This document shows, piece by piece, positions 3,909 through 32,587 of a stretch of DNA of 42,736 nucleotides. How positions within the stretch are numbered: position 1 is the stretch's first letter; each line of letters opens with the position of its first letter. Source of the DNA: a virus. The position numbers were made by a program, and so were the translations under genes. The notes beneath the pieces are model-generated. The model was given only the letters and a program-made list of their open reading frames with translations. It was not told where the DNA came from and did no database searches. Where the stretch lies: positions 1 through 42,736 of IMG/VR virus record IMGVR_UViG_3300050821_020419; one strand, 5' to 3'.

Positions 3909-4874
3909 ATGAACCTATTTGATCTCTTAAACGCCAATAATTACTTCTGTGTGAATCGCAAGCTAGCTCAAGAAATAGGGTTAGAAACGGCTGTATTCTT
4001 AAGCGAAATAGTAGACAAGCACGCCTACTTCGAATCTAATGAAATGCTGAAAAATGGATGGTTTTATCTAACCATAGAAACTGCTGAAGAGAGAACCAGT
4101 CTTAGTAGAAGACAACAAGACTCAGCCATTGAAGCGCTCAAAAAATTAGGTTTTATCGATTCCAAGCAAATGGGCTTACCAGCTAAAAGGCATTTCTTCC
4201 TTTTTAAAGAAAAGATTACAGAATGGCTGTTTCGTACAAACAAGGATGGCGATTCGAGCAAACTGGAGTGGCGAAAAACGCCAACCAGGAGTGGCGAAAA
4301 CGAACAACCTACACCTATATATAAAAGACCTAATAAAAAGACCTATATCTCTCTTGTCCCCCCTGTCGGTGAGACGACAGACAGTGTTTCTTCTAAAGAA
4401 AAAAAAGAACTTCCTTCAGAAGCTTATGAAATAGCGGAGGCCATTTGGAAGCACGTTCACAAGATTCATCCGAACCACAAAGCACCTAACATCGAGGAAT
4501 GGGCAAGAACCATCGAGATTTGCCACAGGATCGATCATCGCGCTTGGGAGGACATAAGACTCGTCTTAAGGTTTGCGACCGAAATAGACCCCTTCTGGGC
4601 CAAAACAATGCAGTCCGCCGATTCCTTGCGGAGGAACTTCGATAAGATCTCTTTGAAAATGAAACCTGTCGAGACCGAAGGCTCCAGGATTGAGATAAAC
4701 CGGGAATTTGCCTTCAAAATTAAAAATCTCTTGGCCAAGAAGGGCCAGGAACACCTTTTAATCGTTCATGCCAAGTCAGTCCAAAGGCAAAACGGAGACT
4801 CAACCTCTTTAGATTTGCCTCCAGAAACTTTTGAGAGTATTTTGGTTAACTGGTTTAGCTTGAGGGTGAAATGA
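3909..4874 (+). CDS. replication initiator/replisome organiser-like protein
   Basis: A 321-residue protein. The first 105 residues look like the winged-helix domain of phage replication proteins: an N-terminal helix region (NRKLAQEIGLETAVFLSEIV), then YLTIETAEERTSLSRRQQDSA as the recognition part and a KLGFIDSKQMG turn with a beta wing. A low-complexity linker (about 110-165) leads to a helical C-terminal domain with a DnaD-like feel. Such proteins bind the origin and help load host helicase. Its ribosome site is masked by a hairpin (3887-3908). It is the first gene of a plus-strand operon and overlaps the next gene by ATGA. Assignment rests on architecture, not on a precise family match. Confidence 0.6.
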   Translation: MNLFDLLNANNYFCVNRKLAQEIGLETAVFLSEIVDKHAYFESNEMLKNGWFYLTIETAEERTSLSRRQQDSAIEALKKLGFIDSKQMGLPAKRHFFLFKEKITEWLFRTNKDGDSSKLEWRKTPTRSGENEQPTPIYKRPNKKTYISLVPPVGETTDSVSSKEKKELPSEAYEIAEAIWKHVHKIHPNHKAPNIEEWARTIEICHRIDHRAWEDIRLVLRFATEIDPFWAKTMQSADSLRRNFDKISLKMKPVETEGSRIEINREFAFKIKNLLAKKGQEHLLIVHAKSVQRQNGDSTSLDLPPETFESILVNWFSLRVK

Positions 4875-12898: not shown

Positions 12899-12975
12899 TG
12901 GCATTTGAAGTAGGAATCGAACCCACAACCCCAACATTAACAGTGTCGTGCTCTAACCAGTTGAGCTATTCATAT
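12899..12975 (-). tRNA. tRNA-Asn (GTT)
   Basis: The minus strand folds as a full cloverleaf: acceptor ATATGAA/TTCAAAT with one A-A mismatch, D arm GCTC/GAGC with AACTGGTTA loop, anticodon arm CGACA/TGTTG with loop CTGTTAA (anticodon GTT), T arm GTGGG-TTCGATT-CCTAC, discriminator G and an encoded CCA. The encoded CCA and the nearly perfect arms suggest a working phage tRNA. Confidence 0.9.
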
Positions 12976-16102: not shown

Positions 16103-17062
16103 TCACTTTTCGAAACTTAAGTTTATAACTTTAAAACTTATGGGCGCATGCCCTTGATTATATTGAGATCGGACAACGACTCCTTCTCTCTGGTTTCCGT
16201 TGGCGTATAAACCTTCCCCAAATAACTCTATTCCTCCCTTTTCAAAATACGGCCCTATCTCCACTACGTGGCAGCGAGGAAATTGTAATTGTTCGAGTAG
16301 CTTCCAGAACTCCCGTACTTCCAAATATCGATGTTCGTCAATTTTGTATGCTGAGAAAGCAAATCCATCGATTTCTTGCAGCCCCATAGGGTTGCCCTGG
16401 ATCTTAGGTCCACATGTTTCCCATTGAAGGGCTATGCCTTCTGGTAGATTTTCTTCGAGTTTATATTTAACAGCTATCTTCCAGTATCCATTATTTTCGT
16501 CTCTTTCTAGCTCCATATTTCTAGAGCAAACTCCGAATTGTCCCTTATATCTGAAGGCAGTCGTAGAAGATCCGTCCATTTTTTCTGTTATATAGAAAGG
16601 CTCTCCAACGAGGGCATCGACCAATTCTTCATGTCTTTGGTAATTCGGTTCGTCCGTCTTGGGTATGAAGCTGGGAAAGTTTCCTTTCATTATTCCGGCT
16701 AGGTTGGGGGGAACCGGTTTGTGGTATTTGATAACTCCAAAATTGGCCGTGCAGTCTGTCCCAACTGGAAATTCTAGATGATATGGCATTATTACTACTT
16801 CGCTGGGAGCTCCCTTAAATCTCCTCATCTTCACACGCCAGTCGCTAGATTTCATGAAAAGCATATCTTCTCTTTCGGGGATCTTTGCATCTGGGAGAAA
16901 TACGACGCATAGATCGTCGATATCGAAATCTTGTTTTTTAACCACGCCTTTCCATTTGCCGCCTTCCCCGCACACCACAGTTGCTGATACAATGAAGTCG
17001 GCGTTAGGAATAGGTTGCAAATCTACAATCTTGCCTACGAAAACGAGTCCGTCTTTACTCAT
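16103..17062 (-). CDS. RNA ligase (DRB0094/Rnl5-like)
   Basis: A 319-residue nucleotidyltransferase-type RNA ligase that seals nicks in RNA with ATP. Motif I is EKMDGSS with the AMP-accepting Lys at about 161; motif III-like residues surround WETCGPKIQG; motif IV is REGVVVRS and motif V is SFKVINLSF near the C-terminus. The N-terminal 110 residues (GKIVDLQPIPNADFIVSATV and on) form the extra OB-type domain seen in the Deinococcus DRB0094 type rather than in T4 Rnl1. The start at ATG 17062 is preceded by GGGGAATC and overlaps the upstream stop (ATGA). It probably repairs host-cleaved tRNA or other RNA damage. Confidence 0.85.
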   Translation of the reverse strand: MSKDGLVFVGKIVDLQPIPNADFIVSATVVCGEGGKWKGVVKKQDFDIDDLCVVFLPDAKIPEREDMLFMKSSDWRVKMRRFKGAPSEVVIMPYHLEFPVGTDCTANFGVIKYHKPVPPNLAGIMKGNFPSFIPKTDEPNYQRHEELVDALVGEPFYITEKMDGSSTTAFRYKGQFGVCSRNMELERDENNGYWKIAVKYKLEENLPEGIALQWETCGPKIQGNPMGLQEIDGFAFSAYKIDEHRYLEVREFWKLLEQLQFPRCHVVEIGPYFEKGGIELFGEGLYANGNQREGVVVRSQYNQGHAPISFKVINLSFEK

Positions 17063-17292
17063 GATTCCCCATCCTTTAGCCATCCACCCCATCTTTTCAG
17101 ATAAACCATCGTCTCATAGAATTGATCCACTCCAAGTTCCTCGCATTTTTTGGCGTCTTTAAGGATAGCTTCGTGCTCTTTTCTGCCGTGAACATTTATA
17201 TATGTCACAGGCGGTAGATCGGCTGGAGGATCGATTCCCCTAAATTCATCTAACGGGTTTAGATTTGGCCTAAGATCGATATATTCTTTCAT
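17059..17292 (-). CDS. hypothetical protein upstream of RNA ligase
   Basis: A 77-residue protein starting MKEYIDLRPNLNPLDEFRGI and ending in a helix with KCEELGVDQFYETMVYLKRW. GAGGAATC precedes the ATG, as in several genes of this strand. It overlaps the RNA ligase start, so the two are translationally coupled and could act together. No family is recognised. Confidence 0.55.
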   Translation of the reverse strand: MKEYIDLRPNLNPLDEFRGIDPPADLPPVTYINVHGRKEHEAILKDAKKCEELGVDQFYETMVYLKRWGGWLKDGES

Positions 17293-25700: not shown

Positions 25701-28328
25701 ATGACCCAAAAGATCTTCATTGGCGCCCCTGTCACTAAAGGTCTTGAACAATTCCTTCTACCTTTCAATATCGATAACGATGCTTTTTCCACTCTATTTA
25801 ACGCTTACGCATGGCGCGGTAGAGTCAAAAGGAAAAGAGGAACCATCGCCTTGGGAAGGTTGCAAGTCCAGGTAGATATCGTAAGCAGCGTCACTAAACC
25901 TTGGCAAACGACTGCTGTTACTTTAAGCGGAGGAACAGCAACGCTTCAATTTCCAATCGGCCCAGGCTCTGTGTCTTTCACTGTTGGATCTAACACTTAT
26001 ACAGAGCCTGCAACTCCCGACGGAACCTTAGTAGGAACTCCCTCGGGAAGCGGAACGATTCATTATTCCACCGGTGCCATCACGATCTCAGGCGGAGGCA
26101 GTAGCACTCTGACTGGGACCTATTCGTACTATCCATGTCTCCCGGTAATGGGACTCCGAAATCTCGTGGCAACTTCGAGTCAATATCCTCTGCTTTTATC
26201 CTTCGATACGCAGTACAGTTATGAGATATCGTCTTCTTCCAACACGTTCTACAATGTCAATTTCTATAAGACAACCGGGGTTCCTTTCAAGTGGAGCGGT
26301 CAAAACTATCAACAGTTTTGGACTTCGAATTATCAGGGTGCTTTGTGGGCGACCAACAACAATCCAGGTTTTAACTTTGTTAATGGCACCTATGGTTCTG
26401 GATCAGGAACATCAGCCGTTACGTTCAACTTTAAGTCTCTAACGGTCAATTTCGCAACTTTGGTTGTGGGGGACCAATTGTGGTTCAATGAATGGTCCAG
26501 TGGGGGATCTACCATCAATGGTCTTGTCGGAAGCGTTAGCGATGTGTCTGGAGCGGCTTCTGGTAACTATGTGGTAACTTTCTCAGGCAATCAAACAGTC
26601 GCCGGAACGGGCATTGCTCAGCTTATGACCAACACGATCCCAGGGCAAGATGGAATCAAGTGGTATGATGGAGACCCAACAAGTAACGGCATTCCTCCGA
26701 ATAGTCCTACGGGCTTTGGATGGGTCAATTTTGCACCTCCTTTGACTGCGACGACTACCACTATCGATGATGAACCAGCTCAAAAATATTATCTCGTCGG
26801 GGCATTAGCAGTTGTTCCATTCAAAGACAGACTGATTTTCTTTTCTCCATGGATACAGACGTCTAGTGGGGCATCCGCAATCCAATTGAATGATGTGGCC
26901 TTATGGAGCTGGAATGGAACTCCTTACTATGCAGCACCCGTCCCTTCGGGACAGACTGCCAGTGCGGGCGCCTATTACATCGATCAGATTGGATTTGGTG
27001 GCTGGCTTTCGGCGGGAGTCGATCAATCCATCGTGACTGTCAGCACAAATGAAGACGTTTTGATTGTAGGATTTACACAAAAACAGACTCGCTTTGTGTA
27101 CACAGGTAATGATTTAATCCCGTTCCTTTTCTACATCATCAACTCCGAACTTGGATCGGCCTCCACTTTCTCCGCGATCACCTTAGATAGAGGTGCTCTG
27201 GCATTTGGTTTGAATGGATTGACGTTAACATCGCAAATTTCCTCACAGAGGATCGATCTTTCTATTCCCAACGAAGTGTTCCAGTTGAAAGGCCCAGCTT
27301 CCGTCTTTGCAGCACAAAGGATTAGCTCTGTCCGAGACTTTTATCATGAATGGGTGCATTTCACATTTGTTCCCAATAATAGTCAATGGTCCTATCCAAC
27401 GCAGACTCTTCAGTACAATTATCGAGAGCAAAGCTGGGCGATTTTCTATGAGAACTTTACCGCACATGGAACCTACAGGAAAGTTTCTGCCTATACTTGG
27501 GCAACCATTCCTTTTGCCACATGGAATACATGGAACGAATCGTGGAGCTCTTCTACGCTCAATCCTCTCTTCCCAAGCACAGTAGCTGGCAACCCTCAAG
27601 GATTTGTTGTCGTGAAAGGTCAAGGAACTGGGGAAGCTCCCACAGGATATATTTCAGCCGTCGCCAACACTTCGGGGTTTGTTCAAATTACTTCAACTGA
27701 TCATTGTGTCGCCCAGAATGATTATCTCTATTTCCAAGGAGCTTTGGGAACCACGTTCATCAATGGCGTCATAGGGAAGGTCAGTCAAATCGTCGATGCC
27801 AATAATTTTATCGTAGACATCGTGTTTGTATCGGGAACTTATATCGGACTTGGAACTTTCACTAGGCTGAGTCAGCCCTTGATTCAGACAAAGCAATTTC
27901 CTTTATTTTGGAATGAAGGAAGAAAGATTCGGCTTGGAACACAAAAATATCTTCTGGACTATACAGACAACGCGCAAGTGACTCTCAATATTTACTTAAG
28001 CCAAGATCCAGACGATGCTTGGAATATGGGTCCTATCGTCCCTAACGATGAATCCACTAATAATTCACTGGTCTACTCCACTACTCTTTACACATGTCCT
28101 GAGAGCTCCAATATAGGACTAACGCCCTCTAATACAAACCTTCAGATGCCTATTGCCCAAAATCAGTATCAAATTTGGCACAGGGTCAATACGTCTTTGA
28201 TAGGGGACAGCGTACAAGTCGGCATTACCTTAAGTGATGCTCAAATGAGAAATCTTACCTATGCTACGGCTGAGATCGGTCTTCATGCAATCCAATTAGA
28301 TGTGGCAAAAGGACCGATGCTAAGTTGA
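25701..28328 (+). CDS. large tail accessory (nozzle-like) protein
   Basis: An 875-residue protein made mostly of beta strands. KDRLIFFSPWI, FVYTGNDLIPFLFYIIN and ISSVRDFYHEWVHF with a NYREQSWAIF block resemble the tail nozzle/stabilisation proteins (P22 gp10 or T7 gp12 style) of short-tailed phages. A small inserted FCCH-like domain is at about residues 640-710. The gene follows the connector and precedes a small tail gene with a TTGA overlap. Assignment is by pattern and order. Confidence 0.6.
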   Translation: MTQKIFIGAPVTKGLEQFLLPFNIDNDAFSTLFNAYAWRGRVKRKRGTIALGRLQVQVDIVSSVTKPWQTTAVTLSGGTATLQFPIGPGSVSFTVGSNTYTEPATPDGTLVGTPSGSGTIHYSTGAITISGGGSSTLTGTYSYYPCLPVMGLRNLVATSSQYPLLLSFDTQYSYEISSSSNTFYNVNFYKTTGVPFKWSGQNYQQFWTSNYQGALWATNNNPGFNFVNGTYGSGSGTSAVTFNFKSLTVNFATLVVGDQLWFNEWSSGGSTINGLVGSVSDVSGAASGNYVVTFSGNQTVAGTGIAQLMTNTIPGQDGIKWYDGDPTSNGIPPNSPTGFGWVNFAPPLTATTTTIDDEPAQKYYLVGALAVVPFKDRLIFFSPWIQTSSGASAIQLNDVALWSWNGTPYYAAPVPSGQTASAGAYYIDQIGFGGWLSAGVDQSIVTVSTNEDVLIVGFTQKQTRFVYTGNDLIPFLFYIINSELGSASTFSAITLDRGALAFGLNGLTLTSQISSQRIDLSIPNEVFQLKGPASVFAAQRISSVRDFYHEWVHFTFVPNNSQWSYPTQTLQYNYREQSWAIFYENFTAHGTYRKVSAYTWATIPFATWNTWNESWSSSTLNPLFPSTVAGNPQGFVVVKGQGTGEAPTGYISAVANTSGFVQITSTDHCVAQNDYLYFQGALGTTFINGVIGKVSQIVDANNFIVDIVFVSGTYIGLGTFTRLSQPLIQTKQFPLFWNEGRKIRLGTQKYLLDYTDNAQVTLNIYLSQDPDDAWNMGPIVPNDESTNNSLVYSTTLYTCPESSNIGLTPSNTNLQMPIAQNQYQIWHRVNTSLIGDSVQVGITLSDAQMRNLTYATAEIGLHAIQLDVAKGPMLS

Positions 28329-28813
28329 CATACACTCTAAATAACTCAGGAAGCTACCTAAAAACGTCCAGGACTTTTCCTGAAGAATCACAAATGCTCA
28401 GCGTAGAGATGTCCAAATCATACATCGATATTGCCAACGCTGTGAATGAAAGAACTATCGGGGTGTTTGCAACCGTTCCCTCAGTTACTGGAAACAGTTG
28501 GTTTATCGGTAAAATGTCGCCCACCTCTAATTCTTTGAGACAACAAACGGTCAGGCAGGTTTTTTTATTTACTTCCGCTGGCAGCATCGCGCATGGCATC
28601 AATACTGCCCAAATAGGTGGATTCGTTGCTATATACGGCACCTTCACCGATGGGACGAATTTCTATCCTCTTCCCTATGTCGATGTGAATGCCGCTAATA
28701 ATCAAGTGAATGTTTACGTAAGCCCGACCAATATCGTGATCACAGCTGGGGGTGGATCTCCTCCCACGATTTCAAGTGGGTTTGTAGTTCTAGAGTGGCT
28801 CAGTCAAGTTTAA
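28325..28813 (+). CDS. small tail structural protein
   Basis: A 162-residue protein (LNNSGSYLKTSRTFPEESQM, then MSKSYIDIANAVNERTIGVF) with a beta-rich C-terminal half. The TTG start overlaps the previous stop (TTGA), so translation is coupled. It may be a tail tip or adhesin-support protein. The end overlaps a minus gene by four bases. Confidence 0.55.
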   Translation: MTYTLNNSGSYLKTSRTFPEESQMLSVEMSKSYIDIANAVNERTIGVFATVPSVTGNSWFIGKMSPTSNSLRQQTVRQVFLFTSAGSIAHGINTAQIGGFVAIYGTFTDGTNFYPLPYVDVNAANNQVNVYVSPTNIVITAGGGSPPTISSGFVVLEWLSQV

Positions 28814-29265
28814 TTCCAAAAATGGCTGAAGTGTTTTCCGAATAAATCGTATCCTTTTTGAAGTCTTTCATCGTATTCCTTTCGATTTTTACGATATTCT
28901 TCTCTATCAGCCTCATTTTCCCAAGAAAATTGAACGCTTTTAGACCCATCTTTATCCTTCACGACTGTTCGCTTCATTTTCTCAAGGCCCCCTGGATCAT
29001 TTTTTTCGTTTATCGTTTCTTCCATGGACCATATAATGCAGTCGAGAATATCTTCCCATTTTTTTTCCGCCTCTTCCCATCGTTCATCGTCTGCGTTCTC
29101 GAACATGCAGGAAGGAACTCCGCGTATCTTTTTTTTATATTTTTTCATTGCGGGAAGGATAATATGAGCAAAAGTATCATCTAGCGACCATAGATCATAT
29201 TTATGAATTCTTACCTTTATTTTTCTGCGTCCTTTTTTAGGATATGGCCCCATTTCAACTTTCAT
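28810..29265 (-). CDS. hypothetical charged protein
   Basis: A 151-residue, strongly charged protein with a basic start (MGPYPKKGRRKIKVRIHKYD) and long helices (ERWEEAEKKWEDILDCIIWS; EADREEYRKNRKEYDERLQK). AGGAAGGA precedes the ATG. It ends the minus block that begins with the helicase. I recognise no family, although the WSLDDT and IIWSMEET pieces look conserved. Confidence 0.55.
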   Translation of the reverse strand: MKVEMGPYPKKGRRKIKVRIHKYDLWSLDDTFAHIILPAMKKYKKKIRGVPSCMFENADDERWEEAEKKWEDILDCIIWSMEETINEKNDPGGLEKMKRTVVKDKDGSKSVQFSWENEADREEYRKNRKEYDERLQKGYDLFGKHFSHFWN

Positions 29266-29453
29266 ATTTTTTCCTTCCTAGGTGATCTAACTCTTCTTGG
29301 GCCACATATGACGCTAGATATGAAATGAGCACATGTCTCTTGATGGACATTCAAGGCTTTGGATAATACGTCCATATTGCATAAAGGATGCCACCAAAGC
29401 TCTCTGAAGGCCTTAATTAATTGTTTTTCCGTTTCGATTTCTTTATTTTTCAT
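29262..29453 (-). CDS. small HTH-like protein
   Basis: A 63-residue protein with a short helix-turn-helix-like segment (NMDVLSKALNVHQETCAHFI) and a basic tail. AGAGG inside the end of the upstream gene precedes its ATG (11-base overlap). Coupled translation suggests it works with the integrase-like fusion. Function is inferred only. Confidence 0.5.
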   Translation of the reverse strand: MKNKEIETEKQLIKAFRELWWHPLCNMDVLSKALNVHQETCAHFISSVICGPRRVRSPRKEKI

Positions 29454-30189
29454 ACACCTCTAATTTGATATTCAATTTTTCCATGACTTTAATCAAGTTT
29501 TTGAGTGTGGGATTCTTGGTTTTATCCAGCGTGTATTGCACTGTCTGAAGAGCCATGCCCGTCTCTCTAGCCAAACTTCTTTGGGTAAATGCAAGTTTTT
29601 TCATCGATTCTTGAATCTTAGTATTTAACTTTTCCCTAAAAGATTTGAAAGACTCATCATCTATGACTAAGTTTTTCCCCCTATTATTGGCTTGGTGATG
29701 CATATCACACGCTGTGACAGGATTGTATGTGGCCCATTTCCATTTTTTAATAGCGGTTCCATACAAAGAGGATAAAGCCATGAGATATTTCCTTCGACTC
29801 TCCGTTGTCATGGGAGTACCGTATTTTGTGGTTCTTTGATATAAAGAATCCGCCACAAATTCGATTTCAGAATTCGTAATCTCAGATGCGATTTTATCTC
29901 CCAAATTTTCCTTCCAAAAATTCATATAGGATCTTTGATGGTTCGGATAGTTGCTGGTCGGCAATATTTCTATGATTGCCCTTTCAATCCATAGTTTAAG
30001 AGGCAACTTTGGAATAATGAAACCACCTAAATTGGAATTTTCGAAAGAAGATTCCGTTTGAGATGCGAACAATTCGGCTTTTTCTTTAGTAGAAAAAGTT
30101 TTGGTGATGGCCGCAAATCCTTTTTTTCGGATATATACAGTGTAGCTGAGCTTTCCGTTTTTTCCTTTCCTTTCTCTGACAGACGCCAT
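29443..30189 (-). CDS. integrase N-terminal/core-binding domains fused to HTH, no catalytic domain
   Basis: A 248-residue protein. Residues 1-55 (VRERKGKNGKLSYTVYIRKK and on) are an integrase arm-binding domain. Residues 64-170 look like the SAM-like core-binding domain (LKLWIERAIIEILPTSNYP; SSLYGTAIKKWKWATYNPV). A tyrosine recombinase would then continue with its R..K..HxxR..Y catalytic domain, but after NRGKNLVIDDESFKSFREKL the sequence turns to an XRE-type HTH (FTQRSLARETGMALQTVQYT) and ends. So it can bind DNA but not recombine it; it is probably a regulator or att-site binding protein. AAGGA precedes the ATG. Confidence 0.6.
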   Translation of the reverse strand: MASVRERKGKNGKLSYTVYIRKKGFAAITKTFSTKEKAELFASQTESSFENSNLGGFIIPKLPLKLWIERAIIEILPTSNYPNHQRSYMNFWKENLGDKIASEITNSEIEFVADSLYQRTTKYGTPMTTESRRKYLMALSSLYGTAIKKWKWATYNPVTACDMHHQANNRGKNLVIDDESFKSFREKLNTKIQESMKKLAFTQRSLARETGMALQTVQYTLDKTKNPTLKNLIKVMEKLNIKLEVYEK

Positions 30190-30190
30190 A

Positions 30191-30649
30191 TTATCCTTTT
30201 TTTCCTACTTTTTCTAAGAGTTCAACCACTATCTTTTCCAAGGAATTAACCTTCGCTTCCATTCTCTCGTAGAGCTGGGCGATTGTGGGGTTTTTGATGT
30301 CGAGTTCTTTATAAATTCTGAAAAGCATCTCACGATTGATTCCTAGTTTAGTTCTTATCTGCCAAAAAGATTTTCCCTCATGAAACAATCGGAGGACATC
30401 TTCCTTGTGTGCATCTCCTCTATTGATCTTAGATCCTGAGGTTATTTTTCTGACGTTTCTAGCGTCAGATTCTATTTGAGCTTTTTCAGCATTATAGGAA
30501 TCTTTTCCTCCGGCTCTTCTGATCTCTACTACGACGACGTTTTTTGTTCTTCCCATATTCTTAGCAATTTGTGAGGCGCTGATTCCCTTTTTCAAGGATG
30601 ACTCTATTTCTTTCCTCTCCTCTATCGAGAGTCTTCTAAATTTCCCCAT
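30191..30649 (-). CDS. IS30-like double HTH protein
   Basis: A 152-residue protein. Residues 5-55 (RLSIEERKEIESSLKKGISA, SQIAKNMGRTKNVVVVEIRR) match the N-terminal HTH of IS30-type transposases. A second HTH follows (DVLRLFHEGKSFWQIRTKLG) and then a C-terminal coiled coil (ERMEAKVNSLEKIVVELLEK). There is no DDE catalytic domain, so this is probably a domesticated DNA-binding regulator. It is one base from the integrase-like gene. Confidence 0.55.
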   Translation of the reverse strand: MGKFRRLSIEERKEIESSLKKGISASQIAKNMGRTKNVVVVEIRRAGGKDSYNAEKAQIESDARNVRKITSGSKINRGDAHKEDVLRLFHEGKSFWQIRTKLGINREMLFRIYKELDIKNPTIAQLYERMEAKVNSLEKIVVELLEKVGKKG

Positions 30650-30650
30650 G

Positions 30651-31916
30651 TCAGTTACTTATTCCTATGATTAGTTGATTGGCTACAAATTCTGTCAAAG
30701 GTTCTGAAAAAACAACCTGTTTTTCGCTCAGATATTGCCTCTGCCATACTGAGGCTGGTTTTTCATATATATTTTTTGGGATGAAAACATCCATCTTTTC
30801 AATCACCGTGTGATCAGTTTCGTTAAGAAGTTCTTTTTCTACTCGGATGCCGTAATCGGACAGCCTTTCTCCGTGACGAATTTTATATTTCTTGGCATTG
30901 GCTTCAAAGATATCCTCAATGGAACAGACGTCATATTCATTGTCTGTAAATTCGATCACTTTACAAAGACTTTTCCCCGGGAATGTTCTGGAGCCTCTAC
31001 CTATCATCTGGATATACAATACTTTCGAAGTAGTAGGTCTTGCCATTAGTAAACAGGTTATAGAAGGCTCATCAAACCCTTCGGTAAGAATCTGACAATT
31101 TGTAATCACTGTGATTATCCCTTCCTTAAAATCTTTCAAGATAGACTGACGCCTGGTTTTTGATAGTTCTCCGTGCACTGCTTCACAAGTTATTCCCTTA
31201 TCCCTAAATGACTTAGCTAAATCCTCCGCGTGCGCGATGTTGGCGGTGAAGCATAAAGTTTTGCATTCTGAGGCGATCTTTTTCCATTCGTTCACGATCA
31301 ACTCGTTTCTGTTCTTCACATTGATGATGGGGGCCAATCTAGCTGAGATGAAATCCCCTTTTTGCGTGCTAATACCTTTCAACGAGCAATCCGTTCGAAC
31401 TCGATATCCTTCGTAATCGCAGAGAAAGCCTTCTTTGATCATGTCGATCATGGTAAAAGAGCAGATTGGTTCGCCAAAAATGTCTTTCATTCTCTGTCCA
31501 TCGGATCTGAAGGGAGTGGCCGTAGTTCCGAGTATTTTTAGATTCCCCTCTTGGCTAAGGCGTTCGATTAAGTTTTGATAGGATAGGGCGCCTGATCTAT
31601 GACATTCATCGATGATCAAAAATTCATATCCTTGGTTTTTCAGCTTACCTCTACTGAGATGAACCGAGGCTTTTTGAATAGACATCACTTTATAGGGAAC
31701 GTTTTTTACTATCGTTTTAAGAGTTCTTTCCGACTGTTCTATGAGTTCTTTTGTGTGAGCCACGATTAGAGTTTTCCTATTCAATTTCTGGACGATATGA
31801 GAAAAAACGACCGTCTTGCCGCTGCCCGTCGGTAAAACGATGAGTTGCCTATTTGTCTCTTTGAACCCCGATATCGCATCGGAAATCACTTTTTCTTGGT
31901 ACGGCCTCAATTTCAT
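30651..31916 (-). CDS. DEAD/DEAH-type superfamily 2 helicase
   Basis: A 421-residue helicase. Seen motifs: Q-like RPYQEKV at residue 4; Walker A LPTGSGKT (about 29-36); motif Ia VAHTKELIEQ; motif II IDECHRSG (DECH); motif III GTTATPFRSD; motif V TEGFDEPSITCLLMARPT; motif VI QMIGRGSRTFPG. It is of the RecG/UvsW-like group rather than an RNA helicase by overall order. It likely remodels replication forks or recombination intermediates. A promoter at 31924-31952 puts the transcript start at its ATG, suggesting a leaderless mRNA. It heads the minus operon in the structural half. Confidence 0.85.
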   Translation of the reverse strand: MKLRPYQEKVISDAISGFKETNRQLIVLPTGSGKTVVFSHIVQKLNRKTLIVAHTKELIEQSERTLKTIVKNVPYKVMSIQKASVHLSRGKLKNQGYEFLIIDECHRSGALSYQNLIERLSQEGNLKILGTTATPFRSDGQRMKDIFGEPICSFTMIDMIKEGFLCDYEGYRVRTDCSLKGISTQKGDFISARLAPIINVKNRNELIVNEWKKIASECKTLCFTANIAHAEDLAKSFRDKGITCEAVHGELSKTRRQSILKDFKEGIITVITNCQILTEGFDEPSITCLLMARPTTSKVLYIQMIGRGSRTFPGKSLCKVIEFTDNEYDVCSIEDIFEANAKKYKIRHGERLSDYGIRVEKELLNETDHTVIEKMDVFIPKNIYEKPASVWQRQYLSEKQVVFSEPLTEFVANQLIIGISN

Positions 31917-31923
31917 AGGTCAT

Positions 31924-31952
31924 ATGATAATCCATAGGTCGTTTCAGAACAA
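31924..31952 (-). promoter_or_regulatory. promoter for the helicase operon
   Basis: On the minus strand TTGTTC (31952-31947) and TATCAT (31929-31924) have a 17-base spacer. The start point falls at about 31917, i.e. at the helicase ATG (31916), so the mRNA would be leaderless. Confidence 0.5.
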
Positions 31953-31966
31953 TAACCAATCTTTTT

Positions 31967-31995
31967 TTGAGTTATTCAACAAATATCTTTATAGT
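31967..31995 (+). promoter_or_regulatory. promoter for internal virion protein genes
   Basis: TTGAGT (31967-31972), a 17-base spacer and TATAGT (31990-31995) form a good sigma70 promoter; the start point would be near 32002 and the next ATG at 32021. It diverges from the helicase promoter, with the two -35 boxes 14 bp apart. Confidence 0.6.
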
Positions 31996-32020
31996 GTTAC
32001 CATCGTTTCAAGAGGTATTT

Positions 32021-32587
32021 ATGTCAGCAAACACAGGTTTCGGACCCACTGGAGTTTCTTCCGTTAAGGGAACTGGATATAAGCAAATCTCCATGCCGAC
32101 CAAGTCTAATGATCAAATGGAACTTTTTAGAACTCTTCTTGGAGGAGCTCAAGGAGGTCTAGGCGGCGGGGGATTGTCTCAGCTTTCTAATCTAGCTTCT
32201 GGAGGCGATGAGGCGATGTGGTCGCAACTCGAGGCTCCCGCTATGCGTCAATTTGGTCAGCTCCAAGGGGACATAGCATCTAGATTCAGTGGAATGGGAA
32301 GCGGCGCCCGTAGGTCTAGCGGATTTCAAAACTCTATGAATAGCGCGGCAGTAGATCTATCCGAGAGGCTTCAATCACAACGGATGGGATTGCAACAGAG
32401 TGCGATTCAGCAGCTCTTAGGCTTATCTCAATCACTGTTAGGAACCGATCTTCAAGAGAATATGTTCATGCCCAAGAAAAAGCCGTTCTGGCAGGAACTT
32501 TTGGGCGGAATGTCTCCAGGAATCGGCCAGGGCGTTGGCACCGTTGGGGGAATGTGGTTAGGTAAGAAGGCTGGATTACTAGGGTGA
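32021..32587 (+). CDS. internal virion (ejection-like) protein
   Basis: A 188-residue Gly/Gln/Ser-rich helical protein (QMELFRTLLGGAQGGLGGGG; QLQGDIASRFSGMGSGARRS; DLSERLQSQRMGLQQSAIQQ) ending in a Gly-rich, possibly membrane-active segment (MSPGIGQGVGTVGGMWLGKK). This composition is typical of small podovirus ejection proteins, such as those of T7 gp14 type. AGAGG precedes ATG 32021; the TTG at 31967 is inside the promoter. It is followed at once by a larger protein of similar type. Confidence 0.65.
   Translation: MSANTGFGPTGVSSVKGTGYKQISMPTKSNDQMELFRTLLGGAQGGLGGGGLSQLSNLASGGDEAMWSQLEAPAMRQFGQLQGDIASRFSGMGSGARRSSGFQNSMNSAAVDLSERLQSQRMGLQQSAIQQLLGLSQSLLGTDLQENMFMPKKKPFWQELLGGMSPGIGQGVGTVGGMWLGKKAGLLG

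What the first reader, a model, noticed from the sequence alone, without database searches (positions are those of the whole stretch)
29443..30189. Integrase DNA-binding domains fused to an HTH in place of the catalytic domain
The arm-binding and core-binding parts of a tyrosine recombinase are followed, right where the catalytic domain should begin, by an XRE-type HTH and then the stop. No RHRY residues are present. A protein that can read att-like sites with two kinds of DNA-binding module but not cut would be a new type of phage regulator, perhaps one that silences or competes with integration.
Basis: partly seen in the sequence, partly recalled or inferred. Interest (0 to 1): 0.75.

Follow-up and report, generated by a model that had tools for sequence, protein, structure and literature searches.

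The report
Catalysis-free integrase partnering a phage helicase
A phage gene has kept the DNA-gripping half of an integrase, replaced the DNA-cutting half with a second DNA-reading domain, and travels with a DNA helicase gene in many uncultured phages, so it looks like a DNA-targeting partner for that helicase and not a tool for integration.

Summary
The 248-residue ORF at 29443-30189 (minus strand) has an arm-binding domain (about 1-50) and a core-binding domain (about 62-165) of a tyrosine recombinase, confirmed by sequence and by a predicted fold that finds lambda integrase. An XRE-type helix-turn-helix (about 187-246) follows where the catalytic domain should start. No catalytic domain lies in any frame of the record. 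The interpretation (integration silencer or competitor) is not supported. The gene sits in a reverse-strand operon behind an SF2 helicase and another DNA-binding protein. In 13 phage loci one clade of short helicases (99/95 support) is always followed by an arm plus core-binding protein without a catalytic domain; none of 157 long relatives is. The three cases with a further C-terminal domain form one helicase subclade (100/98). The cassette is optional (3 of 50 related phages), sits in at least three slots in either orientation, and other phages show the empty slot. In one phage the neighbouring HTH_38 protein is fused to this protein. Best reading: an accessory two-part module in which integrase-derived and HTH domains aim a helicase at specific DNA. 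That mechanism is inferred. Transcriptional regulation, as by MrpR, is the main rival. The host is probably Chlamydiota.

The parts
29443..30189 (-). 248-aa protein: integrase arm-binding domain (aa 1-50), core-binding domain (aa ~62-165), XRE-type HTH (aa ~187-246); no catalytic domain
30191..30649 (-). 152-aa DNA-binding protein: IS30-transposase-type HTH_38 (aa 3-45) plus a second HTH resembling the C-terminal domain of DNA invertases (aa 71-138); its HTH_38 part occurs fused to the core-binding/C-terminal-domain protein in related phage G034
   Evidence: Pfam HTH_38 8.6e-10; phrog_125 DNA invertase 1.3e-5; fusion
30651..31916 (-). 421-aa SF2 (ResIII/RadD-like, phrog_16) helicase with intact motifs, first gene of the operon; member of the short-helicase clade always followed by an arm plus core-binding protein
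29262..29453 (-). 63-aa ORF overlapping the end of the integrase-like gene by 11 nt; probably the same operon, function unknown
   Evidence: (overlap), no convincing family match
28810..29265 (-). 151-aa phrog_11543 protein of unknown function, overlapping the previous ORF by 4 nt; last gene of the reverse-strand run
   Evidence: phrog_11543 3.8e-25
28814..31966 (.). variable slot between two conserved plus-strand late genes (28325-28813 and 31967-32587); the slot is empty in several related phages

Best explanation
The gene encodes a catalysis-free DNA-binding protein derived from a tyrosine recombinase, one half of an accessory two-part phage cassette whose other half is a short SF2 helicase. 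SHOWN by sequence: domain make-up, operon, strict pairing with one helicase clade, co-inheritance, optional presence, movement between slots. INFERRED: the integrase-derived domains (here helped by the C-terminal HTH and the neighbouring HTH_38 protein) bind specific DNA sites and recruit or load the helicase there, which then unwinds or strips that DNA. Because the cassette is an optional insert among late genes, it most likely serves conflict or conditional control (against a competing element, or at a phage site) and not the core life cycle.
For: Pairing: of 184 full-length related helicases with at least 250 nt downstream, 14 entries (13 distinct loci) have an arm plus core-binding protein within 500 nt; in most the gene starts 7-25 nt before the helicase stop, L093 overlaps further, G034 is 2 nt away, and in the window the HTH_38 gene lies between; 0 of 157 helicases of 500 aa or more have one. 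Those 13 helicases are one side of a branch, 99/95 support; the three whose partners carry a further C-terminal domain form a subclade, 100/98. The partner-protein tree recovers the HTH-less group at 100/100. In 50 portal-related phages the helicase occurs in 3 (G015, G034, G046) and the full partner in exactly those 3. All partners tested are basic (pI 8.3-9.8). In G034 two HTH_38-like repeats replace the arm domain in a 379-aa fusion with core-binding plus C-terminal domain, directly behind the helicase, linking the window's two DNA-binding proteins. Accessory: the window slot is empty (flanking genes within about 0.25 kb) in G005, G008, G014, G026, G027, G038, and holds other cargo in others. 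The cassette also lies between terminase and portal genes in either orientation and between scaffold and capsid genes. The phage has its own O/DnaD-like initiator.
Against: No interaction, DNA-binding or helicase assay exists; adjacency and co-inheritance do not prove a complex. Genes in one operon can be a helicase plus its repressor. No binding site was found; promoter and terminator matches in the region are no more than shuffles give. No match to a known defence family names the pair.
Confidence: 0.5

Rival explanations
1. It is a transcriptional regulator: a retired tyrosine recombinase that binds operators and represses the cassette promoter or phage promoters, as MrpR does in SPbeta.
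For: MrpR is an experimentally shown precedent: recombinase fold, no recombination activity, master repressor (PMC10516654). The C-terminal domain resembles phage repressors and antitoxin-type HTHs.
Against: MrpR keeps the catalytic-domain fold; here it is missing. Most relatives have no HTH yet keep the helicase link. No inverted or direct repeat resembling an operator was found near the operon; promoter matches around it are at chance level.
Confidence: 0.25
2. Helicase and DNA-binding protein form a replication-initiation pair: the integrase-derived protein marks an origin and loads the helicase.
For: The helicase family (phrog_16) includes phage DNA helicases; an origin-binding adaptor is the simplest use of a helicase plus sequence-specific binder (inference).
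Against: Optional in related phages (3 of 50); the window also has an O/DnaD-like initiation protein at 3909-4874; position and orientation vary.
Confidence: 0.12
3. One reading: it binds att-like sites and silences or competes with integration of this or rival elements.
For: Its arm and core-binding domains are homologous to full integrases found in Chlamydiota and Legionella genomes.
Against: Best identity to any full integrase found is about 30%, so shared att specificity is unlikely; no integrase in the record and the two relatives with an integrase lack the cassette; the constant partner is a helicase.
Confidence: 0.06
4. A decaying integrase gene that by chance ran into an HTH reading frame.
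For: It lacks the catalytic domain; no close homologue exists for a dN/dS test, and the one near-identical pair gave too few changes to judge (0 synonymous, 4 non-synonymous in 95 codons).
Against: Arm plus core-binding without catalytic part recurs in loci with 17-35% identity to the window protein; the ORF is intact and abuts or overlaps its operon neighbours; window and L092 align nearly end to end including the C-terminal domain (28.7%, E 9e-20).
Confidence: 0.03

Closest known systems
Tyrosine recombinases of the lambda Int / Legionella-Chlamydiota integrase type
   Same: Arm-binding and core-binding domains, by sequence and predicted fold
   Different: Whole catalytic domain with the R-H-R-Y residues is absent; replaced by an XRE-type HTH, or by nothing in most relatives; paired with a helicase
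MrpR (YopR), master repressor of Bacillus prophage SPbeta (PMC10516654)
   Same: A recombinase-derived phage protein that has lost catalysis and is expected to act by binding DNA
   Different: MrpR retains the overall recombinase fold including the catalytic-domain region; the window protein has no such domain, has an extra HTH, and comes with a helicase
ALOG domains of plants and DIRS1-type elements (PMC3537659)
   Same: N-terminal DNA-binding domain of tyrosine recombinases reused alone as a DNA-binding module
   Different: Eukaryotic regulators; no helicase partner or XRE HTH (abstract read only)
phrog_16 / RadD-like SF2 phage helicases
   Same: The partner helicase belongs here (phrog_16 E 5e-86)
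   Different: The partner clade is shorter (404-494 aa) and always followed by the integrase-like gene; other phrog_16-like helicases in the sample never are
Phage accessory (moron) hotspots carrying antiviral systems, such as those of P2-like phages (PMC9122126)
   Same: Variable cargo between conserved phage genes, empty in some relatives
   Different: No antiviral activity has been shown or matched for this cassette

Membership tests
Tyrosine recombinase (integrase) | Arm-binding and core-binding DNA-binding domains | tested here: met
Tyrosine recombinase (integrase) | Catalytic domain with R-H-R-Y | tested here: not met
   PF00589 absent from all frames of the record, stops read through; alignment ends before the domain
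MrpR-type retired recombinase repressor | Recombinase fold retained with lost active site | tested here: not met
   catalytic domain missing altogether
MrpR-type retired recombinase repressor | Operator binding and repression | not testable with these tools
   needs binding and reporter assays
XRE/Cro-CI-type HTH proteins | HTH domain over its full profile length | tested here: met
   HTH_3 positions 2-53 of 55, E 2e-4 but 1.3 bits below Pfam cut-off; phrog_4268 1.6e-7 for the excised domain; AF2 confidence low there
SF2 helicase, phrog_16 (partner gene) | Walker A, DExH, TATP and QxxGRxxR motifs | tested here: met
   alignment A3; phrog_16 E 5e-86
Known anti-phage defence system | Match to a defence-system model for the pair | tested here: not met
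   PADLOC: only generic helicase and HTH matches
Phage moron / accessory cassette | Insert between conserved genes, absent from close relatives | tested here: met
   empty slots and alternative cargo
Phage moron / accessory cassette | Own promoter and terminator | tested here: inconclusive
   consensus matches at chance level

The most novel reading that the evidence does not exclude
A new kind of phage-borne system in which a cut-down integrase, with other cut-down transposase-type and invertase-type DNA-binding modules, is the interchangeable targeting subunit that delivers an SF2 helicase to specific DNA, most likely to attack or evict competing mobile elements.
Probability: 0.22. Interest if true: 0.8.

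Novelty: new variant of a known kind. Interest (0 to 1): 0.6.

Why it matters
Retired recombinases acting as DNA-binding proteins are known from single cases such as MrpR. Here a whole co-inherited family of catalysis-free integrase-derived proteins is tied to one helicase clade, across divergent uncultured phages, with no significant relative of the two partners tested among 50,697 deposited phage records beyond ordinary integrases. If the pair works as inferred it would be a modular way to aim a helicase at DNA, with domain swaps (arm domain, HTH_38 repeats, XRE HTH) changing the target. It also gives a ready set of natural variants with which to test the idea, in a phage group that probably infects the hard-to-study Chlamydiota.

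Tried and rejected
Single-protein scans of viral and genome contigs with the window protein found nothing: too divergent for that method, so I went through portal relatives instead. A direct scan with the HTH_38 protein found nothing. PHROGs and NCBIfam scans of the N-terminal half were blank, which did not mean absence of homology. I considered that the HTH might be a misread stub of the catalytic domain, because alignment programs place it against that domain's first segment. Rejected: PF00589 is silent while many independent HTH models match the window, and L086 has an HTH match in the same place (7.5e-4); L092's C-terminal match is weak on its own (0.066), although it aligns with the window's. 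Single-sequence AlphaFold was poor (pLDDT 46.7); the alignment-based model replaced it. Operator-like repeats and promoters: nothing above chance. As a control for the Chlamydiota host signal, Acidobacteriota genomes gave 0 of 297. Paper searches found no description of the helicase plus integrase-like pair.

Full report
OBSERVATION. The ORF at 29443-30189 on the minus strand is intact and 248 residues long. Residues 1 to about 185 are homologous to the N-terminal half of tyrosine recombinases: tblastn against plasmids hits full integrases of Legionella adelaidensis (E 4e-11, residues 1-211) and Paraburkholderia phymatum (E 3e-11, 1-184), and the alignment covers arm-binding and core-binding domains up to the interdomain segment. 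An AlphaFold2 model from a 10-row alignment has mean pLDDT 77.5; the arm and core-binding regions are mostly at 82-95 and the C-terminal part at about 50-65. Foldseek returns lambda integrase (1z1b, probability 1.00) and the lambda core-binding domain (2oxo, TM 0.83 by target length). Residues about 187-246 are an XRE-type HTH (HTH_3 E 2e-4; phrog_4268 1.6e-7 for the excised domain). PF00589 is absent from every frame of the record while all 14 control genomes ring.

SETTING. The record is an IMG/VR virus contig of 42,736 bases with terminase, portal, capsid and tail-type genes on the plus strand and recombination genes (RecE-like, Erf-like) and an O/DnaD-like initiation protein near the left end. 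The finding lies in a reverse-strand run between two plus-strand late genes: helicase 30651-31916, HTH_38 protein 30191-30649, the finding 29443-30189, then ORFs of 63 and 151 aa, with gaps of 1 nt or overlaps throughout. The helicase is SF2, phrog_16 (E 5e-86). The HTH_38 protein joins an IS30-transposase-type HTH to a second HTH resembling the end of DNA invertases.

RELATIVES. Direct searches failed, so I took 80 phages with a related portal and searched 50 of the records. Helicase homologues occur in three (G015, G034, G046) and partners with a core-binding domain in exactly those three; G050 has only an 88-aa free arm domain. In G034 the partner is a 379-aa protein in which two HTH_38-like repeats replace the arm domain ahead of the core-binding and C-terminal domains, and the repeats match the window's separate HTH_38 protein (E 3e-5 each in a pairwise comparison). 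This is a fusion that links the two window proteins. In G015 and G046 the partner is arm plus core-binding only.

PAIRING WITH ONE HELICASE CLADE. Helicase-based scans of viral and genome contigs gave 184 full-length helicases with room downstream. Fourteen entries, 13 distinct loci, have such a partner protein as the adjacent gene (in the window, one gene further); none of 157 long helicases does. Two of the 13 partners (L097, L105) are cut by contig ends, so absence of a catalytic domain is seen only in the 11 complete ones. In the helicase tree the 13 are one side of a branch with 99/95 support; window, G034 and L092, whose partners carry a further C-terminal domain, form a subclade with 100/98 support, and the other ten form the sister group. 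The partner tree recovers the HTH-less group at 100/100 and does not reject a single group of the other three (p-AU 0.31); all cassette proteins lie on one side of a branch from full integrases, though only at 85/82. The trees are midpoint-rooted, and the sample was drawn with this helicase family, so the counts describe this sample only.

ACCESSORY CASSETTE. The window slot lies between genes 28325-28813 and 31967-32587. In G005, G008, G014, G026, G027 and G038 these two genes are separated by roughly 0-0.25 kb, the empty slot; in others the slot holds unrelated cargo, including an HNH endonuclease-like, a ParB-like and a primase-zinc-finger-like gene, named by me from their sequences and not by a library search. 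The helicase plus partner cassette also sits between terminase and portal genes in either orientation (G015, L105, L108) and between scaffold and capsid genes (G046, L259). It is therefore optional and found in several slots.

HOST. The portal protein has relatives in 9 of 234 Chlamydiota genomes, one at 67% identity on a 40-kb phage-like contig (G197), and in 0 of 297 Acidobacteriota. G197 shares tail and capsid genes, and no cassette was found in the 28 kb of it that I fetched. Contigs in metagenome bins can be misassigned, so Chlamydiota is probable, not shown.

MECHANISM. What is shown: a catalysis-free integrase-derived DNA-binding protein, inherited together with a specific helicase lineage, inside an optional cassette. 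What is inferred: it aims the helicase at DNA. The main alternative is a repressor like MrpR, a recombinase-fold protein without recombinase activity that is the master repressor of SPbeta (PMC10516654). Integration control is disfavoured because integrases are missing from the record and rare in the group, and because the two relatives that do have one lack the cassette.

NOVELTY. Retired recombinases are known (MrpR; ALOG domains, PMC3537659), so the kind is known. The truncated form with an HTH, the strict pairing with a helicase clade and the modular swaps are new in what I could search: no significant relative of the window partner (best E 0.05, ordinary integrases) or of the L103 partner among 50,697 deposited phage records, and no paper found describing the pair. 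The Foldseek viral library does list other short integrase-like proteins of 170-201 aa, so free-standing arm plus core-binding proteins may be wider than this cassette.

Noticed in passing
L094:7007-7684 and L100:5143-5826: A serine recombinase (resolvase/invertase type, by eye) gene follows directly behind the helicase plus integrase-like pair in two phages.
   Followed up: no
L089:1486-1752 (G050) and L082:304-555: Free-standing arm-binding-domain proteins of 83-88 aa in related phages, without core-binding or catalytic domain.
   Followed up: partly
window 16103-17092 (-): RNA ligase gene (Pfam RNA_ligase 1e-22, phrog_968 5e-41) beside a phrog_924-type protein of unknown function; one tRNA-Asn at 12899-12975.
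   Followed up: no
window 28814-31966 and the same slot in L322, L329-L332: Hotspot between two late genes with different cargo in different phages (HNH-like, ParB-like, primase-zinc-finger-like).
   Followed up: partly
L342 / G197:C2 (39,969 bases): A phage-like contig in a Chlamydiota genome assembly with 67% portal identity to the window: tailed phages of this group probably infect Chlamydiota.
   Followed up: partly
viral fold library (A0A8S5T878, A0A6J5P5D5, A0A4D5ZRF1, A0A6J5M3I5): Several short viral proteins (170-201 aa, some named integrase) match the model and may be arm plus core-binding proteins without a catalytic domain.
   Followed up: no
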